Origin: a virus
Virus record (IMG/VR): IMGVR_UViG_3300028840_001859
Span: 1 to 28,474 of that record
Length of the DNA: 28,474 nucleotides
Reading direction: 5' to 3' (one strand)
A program made the position numbers and the translations under genes. Below the pieces are notes generated by a model. It was not told the DNA's origin. It made no database searches and worked only from the letters and a program-made list of their open reading frames with translations. This document shows positions 1 to 26,997 of the stretch, one piece after another. The stretch's first letter is position 1. Each line of letters begins with the position of its first letter.

Positions 1-63
1 CGTCGGAGGCGCCGAAAAATGACACAGGGAGGCGCTCGTAAGTGCTTTAATTTATTAGGATAA
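1..63 (+). other. Open tail of a possible upstream gene
   Basis: Frame 1 is open from the first base to a TAA at 61-63 and encodes about 20 residues beginning with a run of arginines. It could be the C-terminus of a gene cut by the window edge. If the window is circular it would join in frame to the open gene at 28271-28474. A short internal ATG at 19 would give only 14 residues and is not convincing as a gene. Nothing else is recognisable before the terminase gene. Confidence 0.3.
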
Positions 64-65
64 AT

Positions 66-563
66 TTGGGGGTTGACGGTTTGGAGCTAATCAGTGCTAC
101 GAAATATGCGAAAAAAAGAGGCTGCGCGCCCGCCCTGATCTCTCAATGGTGCCGAGAGGGAAGACTCAAGGACGCCGCAGAAAAAGCCCCGGATGGTTGG
201 CGCTGGCTTATAGACGCTGACAAGGCCGATGCCATCCTTGACTCCAGCCTTGACCCTGGCCAGAGAAAGCAGCCCGACGTAGACACTTCCGGAGAGCCGT
301 CATTTAGAGACGCCCGCGCCCTTAAGGAACTATACGCCGCCAAGCTAAAGCGCTTAGAGTATGAGAAAAAGCGCAAGACGTTGGTTGAGGTTGAGGACGT
401 TAAGCAAGAGTACTTTCAGGAAGCCCGCGCCCTCAGAGACGCTTTCCTTCAGATCCCAGATCGCCTGGCCGCAAGCCTCGCCACCATGACCGACGAGCAT
501 GAAGTATACCAAACGCTTCGAGATGAGTTAAACGCCATTCTCGCGAGGCTATCCGATGCTTGA
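66..563 (+). CDS. Terminase small subunit (Nu1-like)
   Basis: Likely the DNA-recognition subunit of the packaging motor, which binds the packaging site and hands phage DNA to the large subunit. The 165-residue protein starts with a helix-turn-helix-like segment (about residues 9-45, with a Q-W-C recognition-helix look and a W-R-W wing) as in lambda Nu1. A charged helical region rich in K, R and E (about 80-125) and a C-terminal helical part follow, of the kind used for oligomerisation and large-subunit contact. The start is TTG at 66, with AGGA five bases upstream; there is no nearby ATG in frame. It overlaps the large subunit gene by 8 bases. The assignment rests on the fold-like pattern plus position. 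Confidence 0.75.
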   Translation: MGVDGLELISATKYAKKRGCAPALISQWCREGRLKDAAEKAPDGWRWLIDADKADAILDSSLDPGQRKQPDVDTSGEPSFRDARALKELYAAKLKRLEYEKKRKTLVEVEDVKQEYFQEARALRDAFLQIPDRLAASLATMTDEHEVYQTLRDELNAILARLSDA

Positions 564-2178
564 TAGCCGCGCCATATTTCGCCAAGCTTGGCGCGATGGA
601 TTAACGCCAGATCCAGATATGCTCCTTTCCGATTGGGCCGACGCTCATAGAATGCTGCCCAAGGAGGCGAGCAAGGAGCCGGGGCCATATCGGTGCGAGC
701 GCACGCCGTATCTTGTCGAACCGATGGACACCTTAAGCCCGATGGACCCGACAAACCATGTTGTCGTGATCAAGGGCACGCAGTTAGGCTGGACCACGAT
801 CGGAGAAAACTTGCTCTTCATGGTTGCGCATCTCTACCCAGCGCCTTGCCTTGTCCTATTGCCCACCTTGGACTTGCTAAAACGCTTCTCGCAAAACCGC
901 ATATCACCAGCGCTCAAGGAGATGCAATGCTTGAAGAGCAAGATAGCTCCACCACGCAAGCGAGACAGCGGAAACACTGTGGACACCAAGCGCTTCCCTG
1001 GCGGCTTTTGGCGCTTCGCAACTTCCAACAGCGCGCCCGCCCTCCGCTCAGATCCTATCCGATTTCTTATCCTTGATGACAGAGACGGTTTTGACATCGA
1101 TGTCAATGGGGAGGGCGAACCGGGGAACATTGCCAAGCGTAGGACAGACACCTTTGCACGCTCGAAAAAGATATACGAGAACTCAACCCCAACGGACAAG
1201 CAGACATCTAGAATACTTCGCTCTTGGGAGATCTCATCACAGGCTGAGTATTATATCCCCTGCCCTATTTGTTCCAAGCACTTCAAAATGGGAAAGAGCA
1301 ATTGGGAACAAATGAAGTTCAAAATTTCATCCGATGGCACAATAGACCCTACTTCGGTATATTGGGAGTGTGAGCATTGCAAGGGCGCTATCCACGAGCA
1401 CCACAAAACGGAGATTCTTCGTCAGGGCTATTGGTTGCACTCATACCCAACGAGGCCGATAAAAGGGTTTAAGCTTCCCTCGCTATATTCCCCGATAGGC
1501 TGGCTATCATGGGTGCAAGTGTGTCAAGAGTATATCGAGGCCGTGGCCGATCTTAAAGCACATGACCCGAGCGCCATGAAGACTTGGGAAAATACCCGAA
1601 TGGCTGAAGCCTGGGAAGAAAAGCTAAAGGGCGCTGAGGCTATGGGGTTATACAACAGGCGCGAGGATTACGGGCCAACGGTGCCAATGGGGGGCTTGGT
1701 TTTGACCGCTGCCGTTGACGTCCAAGACGACCGGTTAGAAGTGGGCGTTATCGCCTGGGGTAAAGGCTATGAGAACTGGGGCATAGACTATCAAACGCTC
1801 GAAGGATCGACAGTCAAGCGTGAAGTGTGGGCAAAACTCCACGAATATTTGCAAAAGAGATTTGAGCACGAGAGCGGCATCAAGCTCAAGATACAAATGA
1901 CCGCCATTGACAGTGGGTACAATACCGAGGAAGTATACTCATTCTGTGGGCCAAGGCGCGCCACGGGTGTCATTGCCGTTAAGGGGGCGACGCCGACATC
2001 CGTGGCCGCGCTACCGATTGTCGGCCCTCCAAAAGAGGCCGATTATGGCGCTATCAGATACCCGGTTGGCACCAATGCAGCTAAAGACGCTTGGGCGCGC
2101 TGGCTAACAGTAACCGAGGCCGGCCCCAAGGCTTGTCATTTTCCTCTTACTTTCCGCCTGAGTTTTTTGGTATGCTAA
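556..2178 (+). CDS. Terminase large subunit, GpA family (main frame)
   Basis: ATP-driven DNA packaging motor and nuclease of the lambda gpA type. Visible in order: P-loop KGTQLGWT at residues 73-80; Walker B region FLILDD at 170-175, where the family usually has DE; a zinc ribbon with C236, C239, C272 and C275; and an RNase H-like nuclease with D388 (AVDVQDD) and D452 (AIDSGYN). The frame stops at 2178 after about 540 residues, just past a HFP motif. The conserved family C-terminus (LTAEK, then NEALD) continues in the -1 frame to 2459. Either one base has been gained or lost around 2146-2160, or ribosomes shift frame. The third expected nuclease aspartate lies in the shifted part, so this product alone would probably lack a complete nuclease. 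Confidence 0.9.
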   Translation: MLDSRAIFRQAWRDGLTPDPDMLLSDWADAHRMLPKEASKEPGPYRCERTPYLVEPMDTLSPMDPTNHVVVIKGTQLGWTTIGENLLFMVAHLYPAPCLVLLPTLDLLKRFSQNRISPALKEMQCLKSKIAPPRKRDSGNTVDTKRFPGGFWRFATSNSAPALRSDPIRFLILDDRDGFDIDVNGEGEPGNIAKRRTDTFARSKKIYENSTPTDKQTSRILRSWEISSQAEYYIPCPICSKHFKMGKSNWEQMKFKISSDGTIDPTSVYWECEHCKGAIHEHHKTEILRQGYWLHSYPTRPIKGFKLPSLYSPIGWLSWVQVCQEYIEAVADLKAHDPSAMKTWENTRMAEAWEEKLKGAEAMGLYNRREDYGPTVPMGGLVLTAAVDVQDDRLEVGVIAWGKGYENWGIDYQTLEGSTVKREVWAKLHEYLQKRFEHESGIKLKIQMTAIDSGYNTEEVYSFCGPRRATGVIAVKGATPTSVAALPIVGPPKEADYGAIRYPVGTNAAKDAWARWLTVTEAGPKACHFPLTFRLSFLVC

Positions 2179-2459
2179 CAGCCGAGAAGGTGAGAACGCG
2201 CATCGTAAAGGGATATAGCGTGCGCGAGTGGGTGCTGGTTAATAGCCACGCACGCAATGAGGCCTTGGACATTTGGGTTTATAACCTGGCAGCCATTAAG
2301 ATTTTAAGGCCGAACTTTACAGCCATTGAAAGGAAAATTGCAAGTATGCGGCAATCAGATCCCGATGAGCCTGAAAAAAAAGAAAAGCCAAAAGCCATAA
2401 AACGCAAGCGCACCAAGCGAAAAAGGAAACACCGTGGCGGCAATGCTTGGGGGGGGTAA
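2148..2459 (+). CDS. Terminase large subunit, C-terminal part in the -1 frame
   Basis: This frame carries on the GpA-type terminase. It encodes YFPPEFFGMLTAEK, then VKGYSVREW, then NEALDIWVYNLAA, the order expected at the end of this family, followed by a strongly basic tail rich in K and R. The aspartate of NEALD is the expected third metal ligand of the nuclease. The first in-frame ATG is at 2172 but has no clear ribosome binding site, so separate translation seems unlikely. Because the EFF motif just upstream is also in this frame, the break most probably lies between about 2146 and 2160. It ends 3 bases before the next gene. It may be a sequencing indel, a true mutation or programmed frameshifting. 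Confidence 0.75.
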   Translation, partial: YFPPEFFGMLTAEKVRTRIVKGYSVREWVLVNSHARNEALDIWVYNLAAIKILRPNFTAIERKIASMRQSDPDEPEKKEKPKAIKRKRTKRKRKHRGGNAWGG

Positions 2460-2462
2460 ACA

Positions 2463-2714
2463 ATGGCGAGAACGTTAGCCGATGAAAGAAAATACTGCGA
2501 GGATATGATTGAGGCATTAAGCGCCACGCTCGAAGGGCGCGCCGGATCTGATATCACTCAATATCAAGTCGGAGGGCAGTTGATTACTAAAATGCCTGTT
2601 AAAGACTTGATCTACTACCGGGGCTATTTTACCTCAAGGTTACAACAAATTAAGCAACGCGAGCGAGCGCAAAAAGGACAAGCAACAGGCCGCTTGATTC
2701 GGTGCAAATTTTGA
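2463..2714 (+). CDS. gpW-like head-tail connector
   Basis: An 83-residue protein between terminase and portal, the place where lambda-like phages encode gpW. In that family the protein binds the filled head and lets tail-joining proteins attach. The pattern fits: an N-terminal helix (residues 1-25), a short beta hairpin with YQVGGQLITKM (about 34-44), and a second helix with DLIYYRGYFTSRLQQ, then a basic tail. ATG at 2463 follows the terminase stop almost directly. The end overlaps the portal start at 2702 by 13 bases, suggesting coupled translation. Confidence 0.7.
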   Translation: MARTLADERKYCEDMIEALSATLEGRAGSDITQYQVGGQLITKMPVKDLIYYRGYFTSRLQQIKQRERAQKGQATGRLIRCKF

Positions 2715-4207
2715 AGAGCAAATTTTATGGAGGGGTTGACCTAACGCCCCAGATAAAGCCAAGGGTAAAGAAGCTACGCAAGCGCCGATACGATGGCGCG
2801 ACAATTGACCGTTTCTCCTCCGATTGGGTAGCAGGTCAAAGCCGCTCGCCATCCTTTGAGATCCTGCCATATCTGACAACCATGATAACGCGCTCTCGTG
2901 ATCTGGCACAGAATAACGACTATGTGAAAGGCTTTATAAAGCGCGTTAAAACCCAGCTAATACCCGCTCATGGCAGGCACCAAGGCATGAGACTCCAATC
3001 AAGGGCTATGGATAATGGCGAACTTTTAGAGCAAGAAAACGCCACCATCGAGGCCGCGTGGAGTCGTTTTTCAAGGCTTGGCCATTGCGACGTAACACGC
3101 CTAATGACTATGGCCGACATTATAGCCATAGCAGCGCAAACGCTCGTTAGAGATGGCGCTGTTTTTGTCCGGAGGTTAACGGGCTTCGGTAATGATGACT
3201 ACTTTGCGGTACAGCTCCTGGAAGTGGATTACCTCGATTTTGAGCTAACACTTGACCTTGGGGGCGGGCGTAAAATCATTGGAGGGGTTGAGCTTGATGA
3301 ATGGGGCGCGCCGGTCAACTATTATTTTCTGCAAAATCATCCTGGCTCAAGCCTCCAGGGGTATAAACGAGACGCGCACAAGATAATCCCAGCGCGAGAA
3401 CTTATCTATCTTGGCGTTCAAGACGCGCCCGAGCAATACCACTACGCGCCGTGGTTTCATGCCTCGCTTATACGCATGAGGATGCTTGGAAAGTATGAAG
3501 AGTCAGAAGCCATAGCCTCCAGAATAGCCGCCAATAAGATGGGGTTTTATACGACACAGGAGGGTGTAAGCTATACTGGCGACGACTTGACCGACATCGA
3601 CACAGACGAAGTGTTAGAGGATGAGGGGCCGGACTTCTTAACCCAAGCCGAACCGGGCGTACTTGAAGAATTACCTCCTGGCGTTGGTTTCGCTACATTT
3701 GACCCGCAGCATCCCTCTAAAACTTTCGCCGATTTCTGCCGGCATATGTTGAGAGGCGTAAGCGCTGGACAGAATGTCTCATACATTAATTTTGCAAGCG
3801 ATCTAAGAGAGGCTAATTTTGCAAGCATGAGGCAGGGAGAGCTCTCCGAGCGTGATATGTGGATGTTGTTTCAGGCGTGGATAGGCTACCGGCTGATGAA
3901 TGAAATTTTTGAGCCATGGCTATTGATCCAAATGCTATCTGGCCGCTTGCCATACAGGGTTGAAGACTTCGGCAAGCTAAACCGCCCTTACTGGCAGGGT
4001 AAGCGCTGGGCGTGGATTGATCCATTGAAGGATGCCAAGGCCGCTGACGTTGCCATCACTAATCGAACCAAGACGCCTGGCGACGTAATAGAAGAGGGCG
4101 GAGGAGACTTTGACGAAACAATGGCAAAATGGAAAAGACAATTGCCAGTGTTAAATGAATTATTCGGAGGAAACTATGAAACTAATGACTCGAAAGGTCA
4201 GTCTTAA
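2702..4207 (+). CDS. Portal protein, lambda gpB family
   Basis: Forms the ring at one head vertex through which DNA enters and to which the tail is joined. The 501-residue length and order of segments fit the lambda-type portal family. There is an early region with DWVAGQSRSP and SRDLAQNNDYVKGF, a central segment with VDYLDFEL and an EWGAPVNYYF motif, and a late SYINFASDLREANFASMRQGELSERD helix that is typical for these portals. The start is GTG at 2702 inside the gpW-like gene. The end overlaps the capsid gene start at 4176. Confidence 0.92.
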   Translation: MQILKSKFYGGVDLTPQIKPRVKKLRKRRYDGATIDRFSSDWVAGQSRSPSFEILPYLTTMITRSRDLAQNNDYVKGFIKRVKTQLIPAHGRHQGMRLQSRAMDNGELLEQENATIEAAWSRFSRLGHCDVTRLMTMADIIAIAAQTLVRDGAVFVRRLTGFGNDDYFAVQLLEVDYLDFELTLDLGGGRKIIGGVELDEWGAPVNYYFLQNHPGSSLQGYKRDAHKIIPARELIYLGVQDAPEQYHYAPWFHASLIRMRMLGKYEESEAIASRIAANKMGFYTTQEGVSYTGDDLTDIDTDEVLEDEGPDFLTQAEPGVLEELPPGVGFATFDPQHPSKTFADFCRHMLRGVSAGQNVSYINFASDLREANFASMRQGELSERDMWMLFQAWIGYRLMNEIFEPWLLIQMLSGRLPYRVEDFGKLNRPYWQGKRWAWIDPLKDAKAADVAITNRTKTPGDVIEEGGGDFDETMAKWKRQLPVLNELFGGNYETNDSKGQS

Positions 4208-6095
4208 CAGGCCGAAGACCTTAAACGCCGACGCCCGAAGCGTTGAAGTTGTCGGAGCTACTCAAGCGCCAGTTAGGGTTTGGGACTGGGATAGAGGGGC
4301 AATTGATGAAGTGCTCCTGATAAAGGGCGTACAATTGCCAAAAACAAAGCAAGTACCCTTGCTCGATAGCCATAACCGATGGGATACAGAGGATGTAATT
4401 GGCTCATATCGCGACATAAAAAAGAGTGGTGAAGAGCTTACGGGCACGGTGTTTTTCAGCGAACTAGCGGAGAAACAGTGGAAACTTGTTAATGAAGGGC
4501 ACTTGACAGACTTCTCAGTTGGGTACGTAAGAGAAGAAAAGCGCTGGCTCGATGAGGGTGAAAAGTGGAAAACAGGGGGGCAAGAGTTTAACGGCCCTCT
4601 CATGGTTGTTACTAAATGGACACTAAAGGAGCTTTCAGCATGTCCTATCGGGGCCGACGCTGGCGCTAAAGCCAGAGCGGAGCCGGCAGGCATTGACAAG
4701 CGGATAGACGACAAACTTAAACAAGCGCTAAAAGAGCGCGGGGAGGAAAAAATGAAACCTGAAGACAAAGAGACAAGAGACACTCCGGTTGTCGATGTTG
4801 ACCAAGTGAAAGCGACGGCCATAGAAAACGAGCGGGCACGAATCGCAGAGATTAACGCCATCGAGAGCGCTTGCTCAGATAGCGCGAACCTTCGAGAGGC
4901 CGCAGACAAAGCAATAGCCAACGGCGACGATGCAGAGAGCTTCCGGAGAACAGCGTTCGAGGAAGTACTCCGGCAGAACGACGCCAAGCCTGTTGAGAAG
5001 AAAAACGCCGACATTGGTATGTCGCGAAAGGAGATCGAGGGCTATTCCATCCTTCGGGCCATCGCTGCCCACGCGGATAAGGACTGGAGCAACGCTGGCC
5101 TTGAGCGCGAGGCATCGCAAGCTGCAGAGAAAGAGCTTAAACGCTCGCCAAGGGGCTTTTTCATCCCGAGCGACGTGCTGACAGCGCGGAATCCATTCGG
5201 GCACTATAGCGAGCGCGAATTATCAACGCTCAACACTGGCCAATACCTCGTTGATACAGATGTCCTTTACAGCTCATTTATTGAGTTGCTGGAAAACCGG
5301 ATGCTTGTACGGCAATTGGGCGCTACTGTACTTACTGGCTTGGTTGGTGACATCGCCATCCCGAAAGAGACTGGCGCACCAACAATGTATTGGATCGGCG
5401 AAAACAAGGACATAGACGCAGAGAGCGCGCCGACCCTTGGCCAGATTGGATTTACTCCGAAGACCGGCGCGGCATACACGGACTTGAGCCGGAAGCTCAT
5501 CCTTCAATCGAGCATCTCCGTTGAGGCATACACGAGGATGAGACTTCAAAAGACCGTGGCTCTGGGTATCGACTACGCCGCGCTGCACGGTACGGGGTTG
5601 GAGAATATGCCGCGAGGAATTGAGCATACACCTGGAATCAATACCGTTGCCATAGGTGCCAACGGTGGCGCTATGACATGGGCCAAGGCCGTCGAGTTTG
5701 AGACGAGCGTTTCCGCTGATAACGCTGATATTGGTACAATGAACTTCCTGACCAACGCCCGAGCGCGTGGCCACATGAAGACCACTGCCAAAGAGAGCGG
5801 CTACCCGGTCTATATCTGGGAGGGAATGCAGGTCAACGGATATAACGCCTTTGTTTCCAATCAGGTGAGGGGCGATTATGCAAAGGGCACGCATACTGAT
5901 GAGGATTTGTGCGCGGCTTTCTTTGGCAATTGGGCACAGTTGATTATCGCTCAATGGTCAGGGATGGATGTCTTGACAGATCCCTATACCCTGGCGACAA
6001 GCGGCCAAGTGCGGGTGCTGCTTTTCACCGACGTTGACACCAACGTATCACAGCCAACCGCTTTCGCCTTCTGTAGCGATATCGAAGCTGACTAA
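4176..6095 (+). CDS. Prohead protease fused to major capsid protein
   Basis: One reading frame joins two head proteins. Residues 1 to about 175 resemble the HK97-type (S78/U35-like) prohead protease, with the expected His in LLDSHNR (H66) and Ser in DFSVGY (S114). A charged, helical, scaffold-like stretch follows (about 190-285), then an HK97-fold major capsid protein from about residue 320, with FIPSDV, TGQYLV, LLENRMLVRQLG and LTDPYTLATSGQVRV. In the family the protease trims the scaffold-like domain during maturation. I chose ATG 4176 because GGAGG sits 5 bases upstream; an in-frame ATG at 4155 has no such site. Protease-capsid fusions are known, but here a second start at 4752 would allow excess capsid protein to be made. 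Confidence 0.9.
   Translation: MKLMTRKVSLNRPKTLNADARSVEVVGATQAPVRVWDWDRGAIDEVLLIKGVQLPKTKQVPLLDSHNRWDTEDVIGSYRDIKKSGEELTGTVFFSELAEKQWKLVNEGHLTDFSVGYVREEKRWLDEGEKWKTGGQEFNGPLMVVTKWTLKELSACPIGADAGAKARAEPAGIDKRIDDKLKQALKERGEEKMKPEDKETRDTPVVDVDQVKATAIENERARIAEINAIESACSDSANLREAADKAIANGDDAESFRRTAFEEVLRQNDAKPVEKKNADIGMSRKEIEGYSILRAIAAHADKDWSNAGLEREASQAAEKELKRSPRGFFIPSDVLTARNPFGHYSERELSTLNTGQYLVDTDVLYSSFIELLENRMLVRQLGATVLTGLVGDIAIPKETGAPTMYWIGENKDIDAESAPTLGQIGFTPKTGAAYTDLSRKLILQSSISVEAYTRMRLQKTVALGIDYAALHGTGLENMPRGIEHTPGINTVAIGANGGAMTWAKAVEFETSVSADNADIGTMNFLTNARARGHMKTTAKESGYPVYIWEGMQVNGYNAFVSNQVRGDYAKGTHTDEDLCAAFFGNWAQLIIAQWSGMDVLTDPYTLATSGQVRVLLFTDVDTNVSQPTAFAFCSDIEAD
4741..4754 (+). promoter_or_regulatory. 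Internal ribosome binding site inside the protease-capsid gene
   Basis: GGGAGG followed by AAAAAA and ATG lies at the boundary between the protease and scaffold-capsid parts. It matches the Shine-Dalgarno consensus as well as the sites of the stand-alone genes nearby, with suitable spacing. Confidence 0.6.
4752..6095 (+). CDS. Nested major capsid protein from an internal start
   Basis: An in-frame ATG at 4752 has an excellent ribosome binding site (GGGAGG at 4741-4746, then an A run). Starting here gives a 447-residue product with no protease residues: a charged helical N-terminal region (about residues 1-95) like the HK97 delta domain, then the whole capsid fold. Capsid subunits are needed in hundreds of copies and protease in few, so two products from one gene make sense, comparable in logic to lambda C/Nu3. 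This is inferred from sequence only; the full-length fusion could still be made and cleaved instead. Confidence 0.55.
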   Translation: MKPEDKETRDTPVVDVDQVKATAIENERARIAEINAIESACSDSANLREAADKAIANGDDAESFRRTAFEEVLRQNDAKPVEKKNADIGMSRKEIEGYSILRAIAAHADKDWSNAGLEREASQAAEKELKRSPRGFFIPSDVLTARNPFGHYSERELSTLNTGQYLVDTDVLYSSFIELLENRMLVRQLGATVLTGLVGDIAIPKETGAPTMYWIGENKDIDAESAPTLGQIGFTPKTGAAYTDLSRKLILQSSISVEAYTRMRLQKTVALGIDYAALHGTGLENMPRGIEHTPGINTVAIGANGGAMTWAKAVEFETSVSADNADIGTMNFLTNARARGHMKTTAKESGYPVYIWEGMQVNGYNAFVSNQVRGDYAKGTHTDEDLCAAFFGNWAQLIIAQWSGMDVLTDPYTLATSGQVRVLLFTDVDTNVSQPTAFAFCSDIEAD

Positions 6096-6102
6096 AAAAA
6101 AC

Positions 6103-6121
6103 TGGGGGCGCTATGCCCCCA
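6103..6121. terminator. Hairpin after the capsid gene
   Basis: TGGGGGC and GCCCCCA form a perfect 7-bp stem with a 5-base loop. On the + strand it is followed by ATAAAAAGGAGG, the next gene's ribosome binding site, so it lacks a U tract. On the - strand it is followed by a run of eight T. It could therefore stop antisense transcription, or protect or separate the capsid mRNA end. Confidence 0.45.
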
Positions 6122-6139
6122 TAAAAAGGAGGTAATAAA

Positions 6140-6520
6140 ATGCCGACAATCAGAGAATTAAGCGGGAATGTAGATCCGAGAACGCTTTACTGTGACACGC
6201 CCTCAGCGGCCTTTCTTGGCGCGGCGCTGACTATCCCAAAAGGTGCCTATGGTATTATGTATGGAATTGTAGCCGGGGCTGATGACGAAGCCGTTGTCGC
6301 CAAGGTTACAGAGTGTGACACCGTTGGTGGAACATATACTGACATCACTGGCGCGACGTTTGCGCTTGATGACACCTTGACCGGAAGCTCTCGCCTTTAC
6401 ACTTGTTTTGTTAAGTCAAATCAAGAGTTTCAAAAGGTATCGGTGACGAGCACGCCAACAGGCGGCCTTGAATACGTTGTCTTCGCGCTCATTCATGGTC
6501 AGAAAGAAGTGCCAGTCTAA
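6140..6520 (+). CDS. Possible head decoration protein
   Basis: A 126-residue protein of unknown family. Hydrophobic and beta-prone segments alternate with glycine- and threonine-rich turns, and there are no membrane segments. It lies directly after the major capsid gene behind a strong ribosome binding site (GGAGG, 6128-6132), where many phages encode a capsid decoration or cement protein. That role is inferred from position and the beta-rich look only. The end overlaps the next gene by one base (TAATG). Confidence 0.5.
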   Translation: MPTIRELSGNVDPRTLYCDTPSAAFLGAALTIPKGAYGIMYGIVAGADDEAVVAKVTECDTVGGTYTDITGATFALDDTLTGSSRLYTCFVKSNQEFQKVSVTSTPTGGLEYVVFALIHGQKEVPV

Positions 6521-6834
6521 TGGCAATCAATATTCAATCTATGGTTGATGCCGACACGGCTGCTATTATTGGCTCTGGTGGTGAAGTGGCAGAGGAGATC
6601 GCTTACAATGCCGCCACCATCTGGGCCATAGTCGTGCGAAACAAGGAGATTGAGAAACAAGTTGGCTTGGTGATATCAGACGCCACGGTCTATGCCAAAA
6701 AGTCAGATATCGCCAATCCTTCCGGTGCCGATAAACTTGTAATTGATGGTATCAACTATAGGGTTGGATCAATCGACGATTATTCGCCGAGTATCTGGGC
6801 GATAGAAACGAATAAGTGGTTGGGAGATGCCTGA
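6520..6834 (+). CDS. Head-tail joining protein (stopper-like, gpFII-like)
   Basis: The 104-residue protein has the length and layout of lambda gpFII-type joining proteins. It has a helical start, a middle strand region, and the ending D-K-L-V-I-D-G-I-N-Y-R-V-G-S-I, a strand pattern common to this group. In that family the protein seals the portal channel and docks the tail. It starts in the stop codon of the previous gene and overlaps the next by 8 bases. The order after the capsid gene agrees. The identification is by pattern, not by a catalytic motif. Confidence 0.6.
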   Translation: MAINIQSMVDADTAAIIGSGGEVAEEIAYNAATIWAIVVRNKEIEKQVGLVISDATVYAKKSDIANPSGADKLVIDGINYRVGSIDDYSPSIWAIETNKWLGDA

Positions 6835-19674: not shown

Positions 19675-19845
19675 TCACTCATCCCTTGTCGAAATGATTG
19701 GCTTTTGGTGCTCGATTGGTGGCGCTTGTGACTCAAGGATGAGGTCGGATAGTTCTATTAATAGATCTTTGGTTTGATTGTTAATCTCTGGCGCTCCATA
19801 TCTTACCTTGAATTGAAACTCATCTATTTTCTTTTGTAGGCTCAT
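19675..19845 (-). CDS. Small unknown protein, last gene of the leftward operon
   Basis: A 56-residue protein: a charged N-terminal helix (M-S-L-Q-K-K-I-D-E-F-Q), then a leucine-rich helix (D-L-L-I-E-L-S-D-L-I-L-E). The start overlaps the stop of the upstream gene as TGATG, and GGAGG lies 4 bases ahead. It ends 5 bases from the convergent membrane-protein gene. The family is unknown. The gene is supported by coupling, ribosome binding site and an uninterrupted frame. Confidence 0.6.
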   Translation of the reverse strand: MSLQKKIDEFQFKVRYGAPEINNQTKDLLIELSDLILESQAPPIEHQKPIISTRDE

Positions 19846-20213
19846 CACTCCTCCACGCCAGATAAGGCTCTTAAAATAGCTATTACTGACTTTATGTCAT
19901 ATTGAAGGCTTGTCTCAATCGCAGTGCACGTCACCACGGTGCGCACGCGCACGGAGATTTCTGGGTTATTGGTGGTGTCAAGTTCAACGTTTCCTTGCTC
20001 ATCTGGATAGAAAATGCCGGCCATTGGTGGCGTATCAACGAAGTCGAGAGTTGCGGCGTCAACCTCATATGTGAGCACTTGGCACTTGACGCCAGGGCTT
20101 GAATGAACCTCAACTTGAGGCGTGGTTAATCTAACGAGATCCGCGCTTGCTATGGTTGGCGCGAAAATCAAAATAATTAAAAGTCTAATTCCCATTTTGT
20201 ATATAGCTCCCAT
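19845..20213 (-). CDS. Exported protein with signal peptide
   Basis: The N-terminus has a basic start, a hydrophobic core (L-L-I-I-L-I-F-A-P-T) and A-S-A before D, a typical Sec signal peptide. The mature part, about 98 residues, is beta-rich with two cysteines (one in K-C-Q-V-L, one in T-C-T-A) that could form a disulfide in the periplasm. It could start at 20213 or at the second ATG at 20195, which has GGGAG upstream. It overlaps genes on both sides within the leftward operon. Function unknown; an exported early product could alter the host envelope. Confidence 0.6.
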   Translation of the reverse strand: MGAIYKMGIRLLIILIFAPTIASADLVRLTTPQVEVHSSPGVKCQVLTYEVDAATLDFVDTPPMAGIFYPDEQGNVELDTTNNPEISVRVRTVVTCTAIETSLQYDIKSVIAILRALSGVEE

Positions 20214-20521
20214 GCGTCTTGTAGTTTCCCCCGTGTTATTTTAATGTGTTTCAGGTGGCCTTGTCTATCTTCATAGGTCACTGGCCGACCAATTAAAAGA
20301 TGGGTAAATTGATAGTTTTTGGCGTTGTCGCCATCATATAAAAAGCGCCAATCTTTTGACGCTGAAATCTGGATACCTGTTCTATCTTCAAAATACTTGA
20401 TAAAGCGCTTATCATCGAGATTATACGAATACTCATCTATTTTGAGTAATACGTCCAATCTATTGCAAAGCATCTTAGGGAATGGCCTCTGCCATCCTGT
20501 TTGCTCATGGATTGTTTTCAC
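20177..20521 (-). CDS. Unknown protein in the leftward operon
   Basis: A 114-residue protein with a hydrophilic, aromatic-rich sequence (D-W-R-F-L-Y-D-G-D, Y-E-D-R-Q-G-H-L-K). It begins with GTG at 20521 as GTGA across the stop of the gene before, with GGAGG just upstream. I see no membrane segment or known motif. Tight overlap with both neighbours supports it as part of one transcript from the leftward promoter. Confidence 0.6.
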   Translation of the reverse strand: MKTIHEQTGWQRPFPKMLCNRLDVLLKIDEYSYNLDDKRFIKYFEDRTGIQISASKDWRFLYDGDNAKNYQFTHLLIGRPVTYEDRQGHLKHIKITRGKLQDAWELYTKWELDF

Positions 20522-20805
20522 TCATCCTCCTCGGCTTCGGTGTGGTCTTCCTCTTCGTTTTTTACCCATTTTCCCGATTCACTTATCCTCCACTCTTCGC
20601 CATACGGGCCACACCATGATGCTTGATCATAATAAACATGTCTATATATGATTGTATCATCCTCGTCTAAATCAGGGCATTCTGAATTCCCGTACCATTG
20701 TGCCGGGTCGCCGTCGATATAGCCAATTGTTGTTGAACCATCGGTGGAAATAATTTCAACTTCTAATTTTTCACCATATTTATTTTCGATTTTGTAATCA
20801 GCCAT
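20518..20805 (-). CDS. Acidic small protein
   Basis: A 95-residue protein, very acidic, especially at the C-terminus (E-E-E-D-H-T-E-A-E-E-D-E). The middle is rich in Y, W and G (Q-W-Y-G-N-S, W-C-G-P-Y-G-E-E-W). The start at 20805 is chosen for its AAGGAG site; a longer frame to 20862 has none and would run into the next gene. Small acidic early phage proteins sometimes mimic DNA to block host defence, but there is no family evidence here. Confidence 0.6.
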   Translation of the reverse strand: MADYKIENKYGEKLEVEIISTDGSTTIGYIDGDPAQWYGNSECPDLDEDDTIIYRHVYYDQASWCGPYGEEWRISESGKWVKNEEEDHTEAEEDE

Positions 20806-20816
20806 TTTTTTCTCCT

Positions 20817-20978
20817 TTATGCCCTTTCTGACATAATTTCTTTTATAGCATTTTCTTCCCATGTCGTTGCTGGGCGATTGCCAGCCATCGCGGCAATTAG
20901 ATCATTTGTTATCATGTCAACATAATGAGGGGCTTGAGTTCTTTTTACATAGTCTTTTATGTGCTCTGGTAATGTCAT
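20817..20978 (-). CDS. First gene of the leftward operon, small unknown protein
   Basis: A 53-residue protein with M-T-L-P-E-H-I-K-D-Y-V-K-R and two later helices. AGGAG lies 7 bases before ATG 20978, and the gene is about 25 bases downstream of the predicted transcript start from the leftward promoter. The family is unknown. Confidence 0.6.
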   Translation of the reverse strand: MTLPEHIKDYVKRTQAPHYVDMITNDLIAAMAGNRPATTWEENAIKEIMSERA

Positions 20979-21010: not shown

Positions 21011-21039
21011 TTTATATATCGCGCTTTGCGATAAGTCAA
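21011..21039 (-). promoter_or_regulatory. Leftward promoter with operator in its spacer
   Basis: On the - strand TTGACT (-35, 21039-21034), a 17-base spacer and TATAAA (-10, 21016-21011) form a near-consensus sigma-70 promoter. The spacer is exactly operator O1, so a bound repressor would directly block polymerase. It drives the five small genes downstream. Confidence 0.75.
21017..21033. promoter_or_regulatory. Operator O1
   Basis: TATCGC-GCTTT-GCGATA, a perfect inverted repeat with 6-bp arms. It fills the leftward promoter spacer. Confidence 0.75.
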
Positions 21040-21048
21040 GTATTATTT

Positions 21049-21065
21049 TATCGCAAACTGCGAAA
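21049..21065. promoter_or_regulatory. Operator O2
   Basis: TATCGC-AAACT-GCGAAA, same 17-bp design as O1 with one mismatch in the right arm. It lies between the two promoters, 7 bases upstream of the rightward -35. Confidence 0.7.
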
Positions 21066-21072
21066 AAAATTG

Positions 21073-21102
21073 TTGACACGTCATAGGCTAAAATGGTTTA
21101 AA
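21073..21102 (+). promoter_or_regulatory. Rightward promoter
   Basis: TTGACA at 21073-21078 is a consensus -35. A weaker -10 (TTTAAA, 21097-21102, 18-base spacer) follows, with O3 beginning 2 bases later, covering the predicted start site. It would transcribe the regulator and recombination genes. Confidence 0.6.
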
Positions 21103-21103
21103 A

Positions 21104-21120
21104 TATCGCAACTGGCGAAA
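21104..21120. promoter_or_regulatory. Operator O3
   Basis: TATCGC-AACTG-GCGAAA, matching O2 in both arms. It covers the likely transcription start of the rightward promoter, so binding there would repress the regulator's own operon. Confidence 0.7.
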
Positions 21121-21141
21121 ACACCAAAAAGGAGGGAGACA

Positions 21142-21348
21142 TTGGCAACTCAAATAGAACTATCAAAGGCGTCTGGCATTGGCCAAGGACACCTATCAGA
21201 TATATTAAGGGGCGTTAAGCCCATTGGCAGGGAGACGGCTCAAAAGCTTGAAAGGTTTACCCAGATCCGCTGGGTAGAGTTTTTGGACATGGGGGCCGAC
21301 GAAGTGAAAAAAGCAATGGAGGAGGCGTATAAAAATGCCACTGATTAG
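21142..21348 (+). CDS. Cro/repressor-like helix-turn-helix regulator
   Basis: A 68-residue DNA-binding protein. Residues 3-12 and 15-24 form a helix-turn-helix with the pattern S-G-I-G-Q-G-H-L-S-D-I-L-R-G, typical of Cro/CI-like proteins. I take the TTG at 21142 as start because GGAGG lies 6 bases ahead. The frame is open back to a TTG at 21070, which would supply a first helix, but that codon is upstream of the predicted transcript start and lacks a ribosome binding site. It most probably binds the three 17-bp operators directly upstream and controls both divergent operons. No separate CI-like repressor is seen in the window. Confidence 0.75.
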   Translation: MATQIELSKASGIGQGHLSDILRGVKPIGRETAQKLERFTQIRWVEFLDMGADEVKKAMEEAYKNATD

Positions 21349-22126
21349 GGATCTGCCAAACAAAGAATATCATGCCAAGCCAGGTTTAAGCTCATCTGGC
21401 CTTGGATCACTGGCAAAGTCGCCAGCGCATTACCTGGCGAGCAAAGAAGATCAAGAGGAAACCAAGGCGCTCAAATTTGGCACGGCTTTCCATACCTATG
21501 TATTGGAGCCGGAAAAGTTTCAGGCAGAGATAGCCGTAGCTCCAAAAGTGGATAGACGAACCAAGGCCGGAAAAACAGCATGGATCGAATTCGTTGGTAG
21601 CGCTGCCGACAAAACCATCATAGATGAGGAGGATATGGAAACCATAAAGCGCATGGGCGAAAGCGTTTACGCTCATCCCGAAGCCATGCGTTTGCTCGAT
21701 GCCGAGGGTTTTGTGGAGGTTTCGTGCTTTTGGGATGATTATACACTTGGCGCGCCGTGCAAATGCCGCCCAGATAAGCTCAATGCTGGTGGTGCTTGTA
21801 TAGATCTAAAGAGCACGGAGGATGCCAGCCAACGGGCTTTTGCGCGCTCATGTGGTCAATATAACTATATTAAGCGCGCCGCGTTTTATCTTCGAGGCTT
21901 GAGCCAAGTAACGGGGTACCCACATACCGAATTTTATTTTATCGCCGTAGAGAAAAAAGCGCCATATGGCACGATGGTTTATCAAGTGCCACGAGTTTAC
22001 CTCGACATTGCAGCCGAGGAACTCGACGCGCTAATAGCCCTCTATGGCCGCTGCATTAAAGATGACCTCTGGCCCGGTTATCTGCCGGAAGTCGAACAAT
22101 TAACCATGCCCGCATGGGCACTATAA
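21335..22126 (+). CDS. RecE-like exonuclease (PD-(D/E)XK)
   Basis: A 263-residue nuclease of the exodeoxyribonuclease VIII/RecE type, which degrades one strand of double-stranded DNA to leave a 3' overhang for a partner annealing protein. Visible motifs: F-G-T-A-F-H (about 48-53), R-P-D-K-L (D147), I-D-L-K-S-T (D157, K159) and the following Q-Y-N-Y-I-K helix (Q175), all standard for this fold. The ATG at 21335 has GGAGG upstream and overlaps the regulator gene by 14 bases. The RecT-like gene follows. Confidence 0.85.
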   Translation: MPLIRDLPNKEYHAKPGLSSSGLGSLAKSPAHYLASKEDQEETKALKFGTAFHTYVLEPEKFQAEIAVAPKVDRRTKAGKTAWIEFVGSAADKTIIDEEDMETIKRMGESVYAHPEAMRLLDAEGFVEVSCFWDDYTLGAPCKCRPDKLNAGGACIDLKSTEDASQRAFARSCGQYNYIKRAAFYLRGLSQVTGYPHTEFYFIAVEKKAPYGTMVYQVPRVYLDIAAEELDALIALYGRCIKDDLWPGYLPEVEQLTMPAWAL

Positions 22127-22137
22127 AAGGAGCGACT

Positions 22138-23622
22138 ATGAACGAATTAACGACAACAGCCCCCACAAAGGCACTTTCTAACATGCTGTTTGATCACAAC
22201 GCTTTTGAGCATGTCCACAGGGTGGCGGAGATATTCTCGAAGTCAAACTATGTCCCGACTGAATTCCAAAACAACCTTGGTAACTGTATTATCGCGCTCG
22301 ATTACGCTGGGCGTCTTGGCTTGCATCCCCTGATGCTTATGCAAGGTATGGTTTTGGTGCACGGCAAGCCCGCGCTTGAAGGGCGCGTTATCAAGGCCAT
22401 ACTCAACGCCTCCGGATTGTTTGGTCCGGTGCGCTATGAGATTAGAGGCGACATCACGAGGTATGATAACAACGATGATGATGGCTGTAGAGCTTATGCC
22501 GAGCATAGGGCCCTAGGAGAAACGCTCTATGGTTCATGGATAACTTGGCGCGTTGTGATGGCTGAAGGTTGGTATGGCAAGAATGGGAGCAAGTGGAAAA
22601 CGATGCCCGAACAGATGTTCAAATATAGAGCTATCTCATGGTTCGTAAAATCGGAAGCGCCGGAGGTTTTACTCGGGATGCAGACTTCGGAGGAGCTTAG
22701 AGACATTACGCCTATGGTAAAGCGTGGAGAGACATTCGTGGCAGAAGCTCAAGAGAAAATAGAGCAAGCCGAGCCGGTTTATGTCGTGGAGGATGCTACC
22801 AAATTGACAGATAAAATTGATGGTATGCCAGGTCAACCCCTGGCCGAGGTTAAAACAGAGAGCGCCCCCCCTATCGAAGAAAAAGCCGCGCCTAAAGAGG
22901 GGCAAGCGCCCGAAGAGGAGCAAGCGCCAGAGGAAGCCGAGCCACTTAAAAAGCAAGACTTTCTCTCAATGCGTCAAAATTTTACAGAGGAGTGGATCAA
23001 CGCCAATGAGGAGCGGATCAAGGTATCGGAGCCGGATGTCATTGTCGCGCTGATTAAAAAAGCGCGGCGGATGATAGATAAGGATTACGAACTGCCGTGG
23101 GAAAAGGAGGAAACCACCAAGGCTCAAGAGGAAGCCAAGCCCGATGAGGAAGCCAAGCCCGATGAAGCCCCTAAGACATTTGGTTCGGATCCTAATATCA
23201 TGGGACAAGTCAAGGTCATGGTGGCTGAGCGTGGCTATGATATCGAGGGGTTAAAAAGCGCTATGGCGTCTTATCACGTTCTCGAACGCGGCAAGCCAGT
23301 ACGCTACCCTTTTCAGGGCAAAAGCTCCAGAGATTTCTTGGTAGAAGACTTTAAGCACTGGGAACCTTTTCTTGATAGCATTGCGGATGCCCACGCCATC
23401 ATGATGCAGGTTGAGGCCGATGACGAAAATTATCCGGGCTGGACTGACCATATCCGCGTTGTTATGCGCAATGAGGAGGTCATGGGTAAGGATAAGGCCG
23501 TGAGCCGGGCGCGCCATTGGTACACGTTAACCAACGCCACTATAAAGGCCGTTGATAAGCATTATAAAGATTGGCTGAGGGGCTATAGCGAGCAACTTAA
23601 CGGCGACGACGAGCAATTCTAA
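22138..23622 (+). CDS. RecT-like single-strand annealing protein
   Basis: Pairs with the RecE-like exonuclease to anneal complementary strands. The N-terminal 200 residues fit the RecT family: I-A-L-D-Y-A-G-R-L-G-L-H-P, Q-G-M-V-L-V-H-G-K-P-A-L and a later M-F-K-Y-R-A-I-S-W-F. A long linker (about 225-345) is rich in E, P and K, with near repeats of E-E-A-K-P-D. A C-terminal domain of about 145 residues, with H-W-E-P-F and D-W-L-R-G-Y, is unusual for RecT proteins, which are usually near 270 residues; total length here is 494. I chose ATG 22138 for its AAGGAG site over an in-frame ATG at 22114. Confidence 0.85.
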   Translation: MNELTTTAPTKALSNMLFDHNAFEHVHRVAEIFSKSNYVPTEFQNNLGNCIIALDYAGRLGLHPLMLMQGMVLVHGKPALEGRVIKAILNASGLFGPVRYEIRGDITRYDNNDDDGCRAYAEHRALGETLYGSWITWRVVMAEGWYGKNGSKWKTMPEQMFKYRAISWFVKSEAPEVLLGMQTSEELRDITPMVKRGETFVAEAQEKIEQAEPVYVVEDATKLTDKIDGMPGQPLAEVKTESAPPIEEKAAPKEGQAPEEEQAPEEAEPLKKQDFLSMRQNFTEEWINANEERIKVSEPDVIVALIKKARRMIDKDYELPWEKEETTKAQEEAKPDEEAKPDEAPKTFGSDPNIMGQVKVMVAERGYDIEGLKSAMASYHVLERGKPVRYPFQGKSSRDFLVEDFKHWEPFLDSIADAHAIMMQVEADDENYPGWTDHIRVVMRNEEVMGKDKAVSRARHWYTLTNATIKAVDKHYKDWLRGYSEQLNGDDEQF

Positions 23623-24320: not shown

Positions 24321-24486
24321 GCGAAAAAAGGAGATGATTGAGGTATGCTTTCGGAGCGCCGGCGTTAAGTTCACTGATTCGGGCGTTATTTCCTCAATTG
24401 ACGACTTTTGGGAGGGCGTGGCGCGAGCGCTGAGGCACCATGATGGTGAGGATCTGGCCAGTATTTTCGGCCAAAAGGAGGGTTGA
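24313..24486 (+). CDS. Small unknown protein
   Basis: A 57-residue protein (start M-N-E-R-K-K-E, end F-G-Q-K-E-G) behind a GGAGGG site 6 bases before its ATG. The start overlaps the preceding stop region and its own stop overlaps the nuclease start as TGATG. It is charged and helical, with no motif I recognise. Confidence 0.6.
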   Translation: MNERKKEMIEVCFRSAGVKFTDSGVISSIDDFWEGVARALRHHDGEDLASIFGQKEG

Positions 24487-24833
24487 TGAGACGCTTTAAA
24501 CGCCCAGAACCAAAAGAGGCGGAGTTAACGCGGGCCGTTAGGGACATGCTGAAAAGTTTAAAGATATTCCATTTTAAGCACTGGGCCGGCCCGATGACAT
24601 CGCCAAAGGGCATATCGGATATATTGGGATGCTACAAGGGCCGGATGATCGCCATCGAACTTAAAAAGCCAGGGTGGAAGCCACCAAAACCAACCTCTAA
24701 AGCCTATAAGCATTACCGCCACCAAGCCGATTTTATTGACGCAGTCAGGCGCGCGGGTGGCGTTGCTTTTTTCGCCCAGTCAATTGATGACGTTATTGAT
24801 GGCTTAGGGGTTCGGGATAGATTTTTATTTTGA
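24486..24833 (+). CDS. VRR-NUC domain nuclease
   Basis: A 115-residue protein consisting almost wholly of a VRR-NUC fold, a small PD-(D/E)XK nuclease common in phages near recombination genes. The motif K-G-I-S-D-I-L-G (D45) is followed by I-A-I-E-L-K-K-P (E58, K60) and a later H-Q-A-D-F (Q80), the expected catalytic pattern. It may resolve branched DNA. ATG 24486 overlaps the stop of the preceding gene. A cassette array begins 22 bases after its stop. Confidence 0.85.
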   Translation: MRRFKRPEPKEAELTRAVRDMLKSLKIFHFKHWAGPMTSPKGISDILGCYKGRMIAIELKKPGWKPPKPTSKAYKHYRHQADFIDAVRRAGGVAFFAQSIDDVIDGLGVRDRFLF

Positions 24834-25766: not shown

Positions 25767-26489
25767 ATGAACAATTATTTATCATTCGGCGGCGGGGTGA
25801 ACTCAGTAGCTCTTCATTTGCTGATGCTTAAAGAAAAGGTAGATTTTGAGGCTATCTTTATCGATCATGCTACAGACTGGCCGGAAACCTATACATACTT
25901 AGGCATGTTCCAAGAATGGCTAAAAAATGAAGGTCATAAGAGCATAACTGTACTAAAACCAAATGTTGAAGGGTTTTCTTCGTTATACGATTATTTGTGG
26001 CATTATAAAATGATACCGTCTTTCAGACTGCGTTTTTGCACCGATAAATTCAAGGTGCGCGTGGTGCAACAATATGTATCAACGCCATGTTTTATGATGC
26101 TTGGCATTGATGCAGGGGAGAAAAAAAGGGCGAAGATATCTATTAAAAATGGAATAGAAAACAGATTTCCATTGATCGAGTATGACATTGATCGAGATGG
26201 ATGCAAAAAAATAATCAAAGACCATGGCTTGCCCATCCCTATTAAGTCAGGTTGTTACATTTGTCCATTTCAACGGGTCATACAATGGCGTGATCTGAGG
26301 AGGAACAAACCGGACTTGTTTTGCAAGGCGAGAAAATTAGAAGAAAGAGCAACCCGCTTCAGGGTAGAAAGAGGTAAAACGCCTGTAAATATTTCGGCAT
26401 CAAACAAAAAACTAAGTCTGTTGGTTGGTGAAGACCAAATGACCTTATTTAAGCAAGACGAATACCCACCATGCCAATGCGGGTTATAA
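25767..26489 (+). CDS. Cassette 4 gene, PAPS-reductase/alpha-hydrolase-like protein
   Basis: A 240-residue protein of the adenine nucleotide alpha hydrolase (PP-loop, PAPS reductase-like) group. S-F-G-G-G-V-N-S (residues 6-13) is the PP-loop, here with V-N-S where classical members have K-D-S. F-C-T-D-K-F-K (C91) and K-S-G-C-Y-I-C-P-F (C163, C166) are conserved-looking in phage members, and C-Q-C (C236, C238) is at the end. Related phage proteins are common next to DNA-modification genes, so a role in sulfur or nucleotide modification of DNA is possible but inferred. The stop lies within the inverse core of attC4. Confidence 0.75.
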   Translation: MNNYLSFGGGVNSVALHLLMLKEKVDFEAIFIDHATDWPETYTYLGMFQEWLKNEGHKSITVLKPNVEGFSSLYDYLWHYKMIPSFRLRFCTDKFKVRVVQQYVSTPCFMMLGIDAGEKKRAKISIKNGIENRFPLIEYDIDRDGCKKIIKDHGLPIPIKSGCYICPFQRVIQWRDLRRNKPDLFCKARKLEERATRFRVERGKTPVNISASNKKLSLLVGEDQMTLFKQDEYPPCQCGL

Positions 26490-26553: not shown

Positions 26554-26997
26554 ATGCTAAATTTGCAGCCAATAACATATAAAGAAGCCTGCCATTTCAT
26601 AGCCGAGAACCATAGGCATCACTTACCGCCCCAAGGCTGGAAATATGGCATCGCCGTCAATGATGGTGCGGGAAAAATAGTTGGTGTCATTACCATAGGC
26701 CGTCCGGTAGCTCGCCATTATGATAACGGGTACACACTTGAAGTTACTAGATGCTGCACCGATGGGACAAAAAACGCATGTTCAAAGCTGTATTCAGCAG
26801 CATGGCGAGCTGCAAGGGCTTTAGGTTATAAGCGCCTCATAACATACATACTAAAAACAGAGACAGGCGCATCTATAAAGGCGTCAGGCTGGAAACTTGT
26901 TGGTGAGGCCGGAGGTGGCTCATGGTCGAGAAAAACAAGACCACGAATAGATACAGCACCAACAGGGCAAAAGCTACTTTTCGATATAACAAGCTAA
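26554..26997 (+). CDS. Cassette 5 gene, XF1762 family (Mom/GNAT-like)
   Basis: A 147-residue protein that I recognise as the XF1762 family, with H-R-H-H-L-P-P-Q-G-W-K (20-30), G-V-I-T-I-G-R-P-V-A-R (44-54), L-E-V-T-R-C-C-T-D-G-T-K-N-A-C-S (62-77) and A-S-G-W-K-L-V-G (110-117). The family has an acetyltransferase-like fold and is often compared with phage Mu Mom, which modifies adenines to resist restriction. ATG 26554 is only 9 bases after the cassette start and has no ribosome binding site. The 3' end covers an inverse core (CGATATAAC, 26982-26990). Confidence 0.75.
   Translation: MLNLQPITYKEACHFIAENHRHHLPPQGWKYGIAVNDGAGKIVGVITIGRPVARHYDNGYTLEVTRCCTDGTKNACSKLYSAAWRAARALGYKRLITYILKTETGASIKASGWKLVGEAGGGSWSRKTRPRIDTAPTGQKLLFDITS

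What the first reader, a model, noticed from the sequence alone, without database searches (positions are those of the whole stretch)
21011..21120. Three-operator switch with O1 filling a promoter spacer
Three 17-bp sites (TATCGC-N5-GCGAWA) lie at 21017, 21049 and 21104. O1 is exactly the 17-base spacer of TTGACT-TATAAA on the - strand, and O3 covers the start of the rightward promoter beginning TTGACA. The small HTH protein encoded next is the obvious ligand. One small regulator apparently controls both operons, with no CI-like partner seen, which differs from a two-protein lambda switch.
Basis: partly seen in the sequence, partly recalled or inferred. Interest (0 to 1): 0.7.

Follow-up and report, generated by a model that had tools for sequence, protein, structure and literature searches.

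The report
Three-site phage early-promoter switch
A phage DNA fragment carries three matched binding sites between two back-to-back promoters, beside a gene for a small Cro-like DNA-binding protein that probably shuts off both promoters; this is a neat but largely ordinary phage switch, and whether it truly lacks a second repressor cannot be told because the genome is incomplete.

Summary
Three TATCGC-N5-GCGAWA sites lie at 21017, 21049 and 21104; about 0.01 such sites are expected per window, and the next-best place scores 12 bits against 22.6-23.4. O1 is precisely the 17-nt spacer of TTGACT/TATAAA on the minus strand. O3 begins just after a plausible extended -10 of the rightward promoter. 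The adjacent 68-aa protein is a lambda-repressor-fold HTH (PF01381, E=2.4e-7). Independent support that it is the ligand: one of only four viral contigs found by a two-operator DNA scan carries, at those operators, an HTH protein with nearly the same recognition helix (GQGYLSE versus GQGHLSD), and two further relatives of that protein keep TATCGC...GCGATA upstream. However, the other three contigs have the same triple motif between divergent Arc-like genes, so the motif alone does not name the ligand. Most likely this is a Cro-type autorepressor that closes the leftward promoter first and its own promoter later. 'No CI partner' is not established: the record is a 28.5-kb fragment. Operator within the promoter spacer is known architecture (lambda OR1/PR). 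Oddities: the protein starts at helix 2, lacking canonical helix 1, and has no close homologue in the collections searched.

The parts
21017..21033 (.). O1, perfect 17-bp palindrome TATCGCGCTTTGCGATA; fills the spacer of the leftward promoter
21049..21065 (.). O2, TATCGCAAACTGCGAAA; between the two -35 boxes (9 and 7 bp away)
21104..21120 (.). O3, TATCGCAACTGGCGAAA; covers the inferred rightward start
21011..21039 (-). leftward promoter TTGACT-N17-TATAAA, the spacer being exactly O1
   Evidence: consensus match only
21073..21102 (+). rightward promoter TTGACA (21073-21078), extended -10 TGGTTTAAA (21094-21102)
   Evidence: consensus match only
21130..21135 (+). Shine-Dalgarno AGGAGG for the HTH gene
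21142..21348 (+). gene for a 68-aa HTH protein (TTG start), PF01381 HTH_3; starts at helix 2 of the fold
21335..22126 (+). exonuclease VIII-like gene (phrog_412, E=3e-86; PF12684), second gene of the rightward operon
22114..23622 (+). RecT-like annealing protein gene (phrog_561, E=5e-54)
20817..20978 (-). first gene of the leftward operon, 53-aa three-helix protein of unknown family
19675..20805 (-). four further small leftward ORFs (95, 114, 122 and 57 aa), no known family

Best explanation
This is the early control region of a lambda-type tailed phage. Two divergent sigma-70-type promoters drive a leftward operon of small genes and a rightward operon that starts with a Cro-like HTH protein and continues with exonuclease and RecT genes. 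The 68-aa protein, as a dimer, binds O1, O2 and O3. O1, the perfect palindrome, fills the leftward promoter spacer, so occupancy blocks RNA polymerase there. O3 covers the rightward start, so at higher level the protein limits its own operon. O2, centred about 52 bp upstream of both inferred starts, strengthens occupancy or hinders both polymerases. The result is Cro logic: the leftward operon is shut first, then the early rightward operon is throttled. Sites, promoter matches and protein family are shown; binding, order of affinity and direction of effect are inferred.
For: Exact, isolated three-site cluster. Exact overlap of O1 with a promoter spacer. HTH_3 family and structural alignment with SinR, P22 c2 and 434 Cro. 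First gene of the operon, before exo and recT. Scanning 2.9 million viral contigs for paired sites gave four loci; in L006 the sites overlap the start of an HTH protein sharing IGQG[HY]LS[DE] and are the only two exact sites in its 39-kb record. Relatives L019 and L020 (68% and 60% identical to the L006 protein, helices SQGYLCD and AQGHLSE) also carry the motif upstream, the L020 copy with a 4-bp centre, while 15 other XRE proteins with other recognition helices do not.
Against: No binding or transcript data. The motif is also used, in triplicate, beside Arc-like RHH genes in other phages. L006, L019 and L020 are related to each other, so they are not independent cases, and their proteins are longer; L006 has further HTH genes elsewhere in its record. 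The 68-aa protein lacks helix 1 of the fold, and four of five structure models are poor. The rightward -10 is weak.
Confidence: 0.7

Rival explanations
1. Classical two-protein switch: a CI-type repressor encoded in the missing part of the genome, or by one of the unassigned leftward genes, binds the same three operators and the 68-aa protein is its Cro.
For: Three operators between divergent promoters is the lambda and N15 plan (PMC4488713). The record is a fragment. The first leftward product is a small helical protein of unknown family.
Against: In lambda-like maps CI is the first leftward gene (own knowledge); here none of the five leftward products matches a regulator family, and the 53-aa first product gives no credible PDB fold match. 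No S24, integrase, phrog_4 or second HTH_3 match in 28.5 kb.
Confidence: 0.3
2. The sites are read by a protein other than the neighbouring HTH, for example an Arc-like ribbon-helix-helix protein encoded elsewhere or by the host.
For: Three other viral contigs have the same motif in triplicate between divergent Arc-like genes.
Against: No Arc-like match among the leftward products, and the 53-aa product is predicted all-helical without a strand. An HTH with a matching recognition helix co-occurs with the motif elsewhere.
Confidence: 0.1
3. Autoregulated XRE antitoxin-type gene rather than a phage developmental switch.
For: Distant relatives of the L006 protein are RelE/HipB-type antitoxins; weak HigA match of the 68-aa protein.
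Against: No toxin-like gene next to the 68-aa gene; the following gene is an exonuclease VIII-like early gene in the same operon.
Confidence: 0.07

Closest known systems
Lambda OR/PR-PRM with Cro
   Same: Three 17-bp operators between divergent promoters; operator inside a promoter spacer (OR1 in PR); small HTH protein first in the rightward early operon; TATC half-site ends (own knowledge).
   Different: Half-site TATCGC instead of TATCACC; larger spacing (32 and 55 instead of 23-24); no CI seen at the leftward position; HTH sequence starts at helix 2.
Telomere phages N15, phiKO2 and PY54 immB (PMC4488713, PMC4997575)
   Same: Divergent early promoters with three operators (one in PY54) and a Cro that represses.
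   Different: They have a prophage repressor CI/CB opposite cro; here the opposite operon has no recognisable repressor.
XRE regulator of viral contig IMGVR_UViG_3300022554_000316 (L006/L018)
   Same: Recognition helix GAIGQGYLSEL and two TATCGC-N5-GCGATA sites at its own start.
   Different: Longer (up to 124 aa), complete HTH_3 profile, not followed by exo/recT in the stretch read; other HTH genes in the same phage.
Triple TATCGC sites with Arc-like genes (L004, L005, L007)
   Same: Nearly the same operator, three copies, divergent genes.
   Different: Ribbon-helix-helix (PF03869) regulators, not HTH.

Membership tests
Lambda-type Cro/CI operator region | multiple similar ~17-bp dyad operators between divergent promoters | tested here: met
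Lambda-type Cro/CI operator region | operators overlap promoter elements | tested here: met
   O1 exact spacer; O3 at the inferred start (consensus only)
Lambda-type Cro/CI operator region | small HTH protein encoded first in the rightward early operon | tested here: met
Lambda-type Cro/CI operator region | divergently encoded CI repressor | tested here: inconclusive
   none found in the fragment; genome incomplete
Lambda-type Cro/CI operator region | the proteins bind the operators | not testable with these tools
   needs gel shift or footprinting
Lambda-repressor-like HTH (HTH_3, PF01381) | score above the curated cut-off | tested here: met
   31.1 bits against a cut-off of 23
Lambda-repressor-like HTH (HTH_3, PF01381) | complete domain including helix 1 | tested here: not met
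   profile positions 11-54 only; residue 1 aligns to residue 14 of SinR and 434 Cro

The most novel reading that the evidence does not exclude
A single small HTH protein, lacking the usual first helix of the fold, is the only repressor of both early operons in a phage with no CI, so that a strictly lytic phage uses a Cro-only timer.
Probability: 0.25. Interest if true: 0.45.

Novelty: new member of a known kind. Interest (0 to 1): 0.28.

Why it matters
It gives a compact, testable operator set for an uncharacterised HTH protein and ties a recognition helix (QG[HY]LS[DE]) to a half-site (TATCGC). If the phage really has no CI, it would be a clean example of a Cro-only early timer. The finding that Arc-like genes sit beside the same motif warns against naming a regulator from its operator.

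Tried and rejected
Close homologues of the 68-aa protein: none in viral contigs, plasmids, phages or a scan of genome contigs; the one genome hit, L016, does not look like a regulator by its reading frame. A phylum-wide search around that genome was empty and uninformative. An N-terminal extension to supply helix 1: the in-frame upstream codons run through O3 and the Shine-Dalgarno and lack helix-1 hydrophobics; only TTG at 21070/21073 precede, upstream of the inferred start. Homologues of the first leftward protein: none in viral contigs, and only E>1 matches in phages, inside a longer unrelated gene. Fold of the 53-aa protein: no significant PDB match, and for the HTH protein Foldseek gave nothing at E<=0.001. 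Extending the genome to the right: no overlapping contig. Rfam and tRNA scans of the window: nothing; no notable RNA structure in the leader. Literature searches found no report of this operator.

Full report
Observation. The three sites are exactly where stated and are the only exact matches in the whole 28,474-base record. A weight matrix separates them from the rest of the window by 10 bits, and an order-2 Markov model expects 0.01 exact sites per window. Allowing any half-site, three such palindromes within 110 bp arise about once in 100 simulated windows. O1 is exactly the 17-nt spacer of TTGACT/TATAAA on the minus strand. The rightward promoter has TTGACA at 21073 and a weaker, extended -10 (TGGTTTAAA) with an 18-nt spacer; O3 starts one base after it, so it covers the inferred start rather than the hexamers. 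O2 lies between the two -35 boxes, and its centre is about 52 bp from each inferred start (arithmetic from the sequence; starts are inferred).

Surroundings. The record is a linear viral contig. It begins at a small-terminase-like ORF, and an independent contig, L014, 99.9% identical over 6.7 kb, starts at window base 5, which suggests a real genome end such as cos (inference). Large ORFs, including a lambda-type terminase, run rightward to about 19.7 kb. Five small leftward ORFs of unknown family follow, then the switch, then the HTH gene, an exonuclease VIII-like gene and a RecT-like gene. The map is collinear with lambda (own knowledge), and the HTH gene is in the cro position. The last ORF runs off the right end, so the genome is incomplete.

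The protein. The 68-aa product (TTG start, AGGAGG six bases before) matches HTH_3 above its cut-off, but only from profile position 11. The best AlphaFold2 model (pLDDT 89, other models 54-61; single sequence) aligns from residue 1 to residue 14 of SinR and 434 Cro and residue 18 of P22 c2, Z about 4-5. So helix 1 of the fold is absent from the encoded protein, and the upstream in-frame codons do not supply it. How the domain is completed, perhaps by the C-terminal helix 52-67, is unknown.

Ligand test. A scan of 2.9 million viral contigs for two such operators close together returned four loci. In L006 the two operators lie at and just upstream of the probable start of an HTH protein whose helix reads GAIGQGYLSEL against GIGQGHLSDIL here, 43% identity over 40 residues. 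They are the only exact sites in that record. Two relatives, L019 and L020 (SQGYLCD, AQGHLSE), also carry AATCGCTGCTAGCGATA and TATCGCTAAAGCGATA upstream, the half-sites being kept while the centre changes. Fifteen other XRE proteins, mostly more distant, with different recognition helices have no 11/12 match upstream; one (L033) has an 11/12 match downstream of its gene. This supports the neighbouring HTH as the ligand. The caution is that L004, L005 and L007 carry the same motif three times between divergent Arc-like (PF03869) genes, so the operator sequence seems to have been reached by two unrelated folds.

Mechanism. The perfect palindrome O1 blocks the leftward promoter and the imperfect O3 blocks the rightward start. 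If affinity follows symmetry, the protein shuts the leftward operon first and itself later, as lambda Cro does. This ordering is inference.

Absence of CI. No second HTH_3, S24 peptidase, integrase or phrog_4 match was found, and the first leftward product is a 53-aa three-helix protein with no fold match of note. Because the record is a fragment, this does not show that the phage lacks CI. An operator in a promoter spacer is also part of lambda's own design (own knowledge), and N15-type phages show the same divergent plan (PMC4488713).

Verdict. A real, clean operator set of a known kind with a new half-site and an unusual, truncated HTH protein.

Noticed in passing
L004:5885-5960; L005:1305-1381; L007:12096-12174: Three TATCGC-N5-GCGATA operators between divergent Arc-like ribbon-helix-helix genes in three viral contigs, the same motif as here with an unrelated fold.
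   Followed up: partly
window 1-6724: An independent contig (L014) begins at window base 5 and is 99.9% identical, suggesting the window's left end is a true genome end (possibly cos).
   Followed up: partly
window 21142-21348: The HTH protein begins at helix 2 of the lambda-repressor fold; helix 1 is not encoded upstream in frame.
   Followed up: partly
window 26554-26997 and 25767-26489: Mom-like DNA modification gene (phrog_1384, E=3e-39) and PAPS-reductase-like gene (phrog_424, E=9e-33) in the rightward operon, possibly a DNA modification or anti-defence set.
   Followed up: no
window 24483-24833: Small endonuclease or Holliday-junction-resolvase-like protein (phrog_93, E=3e-15).
   Followed up: no
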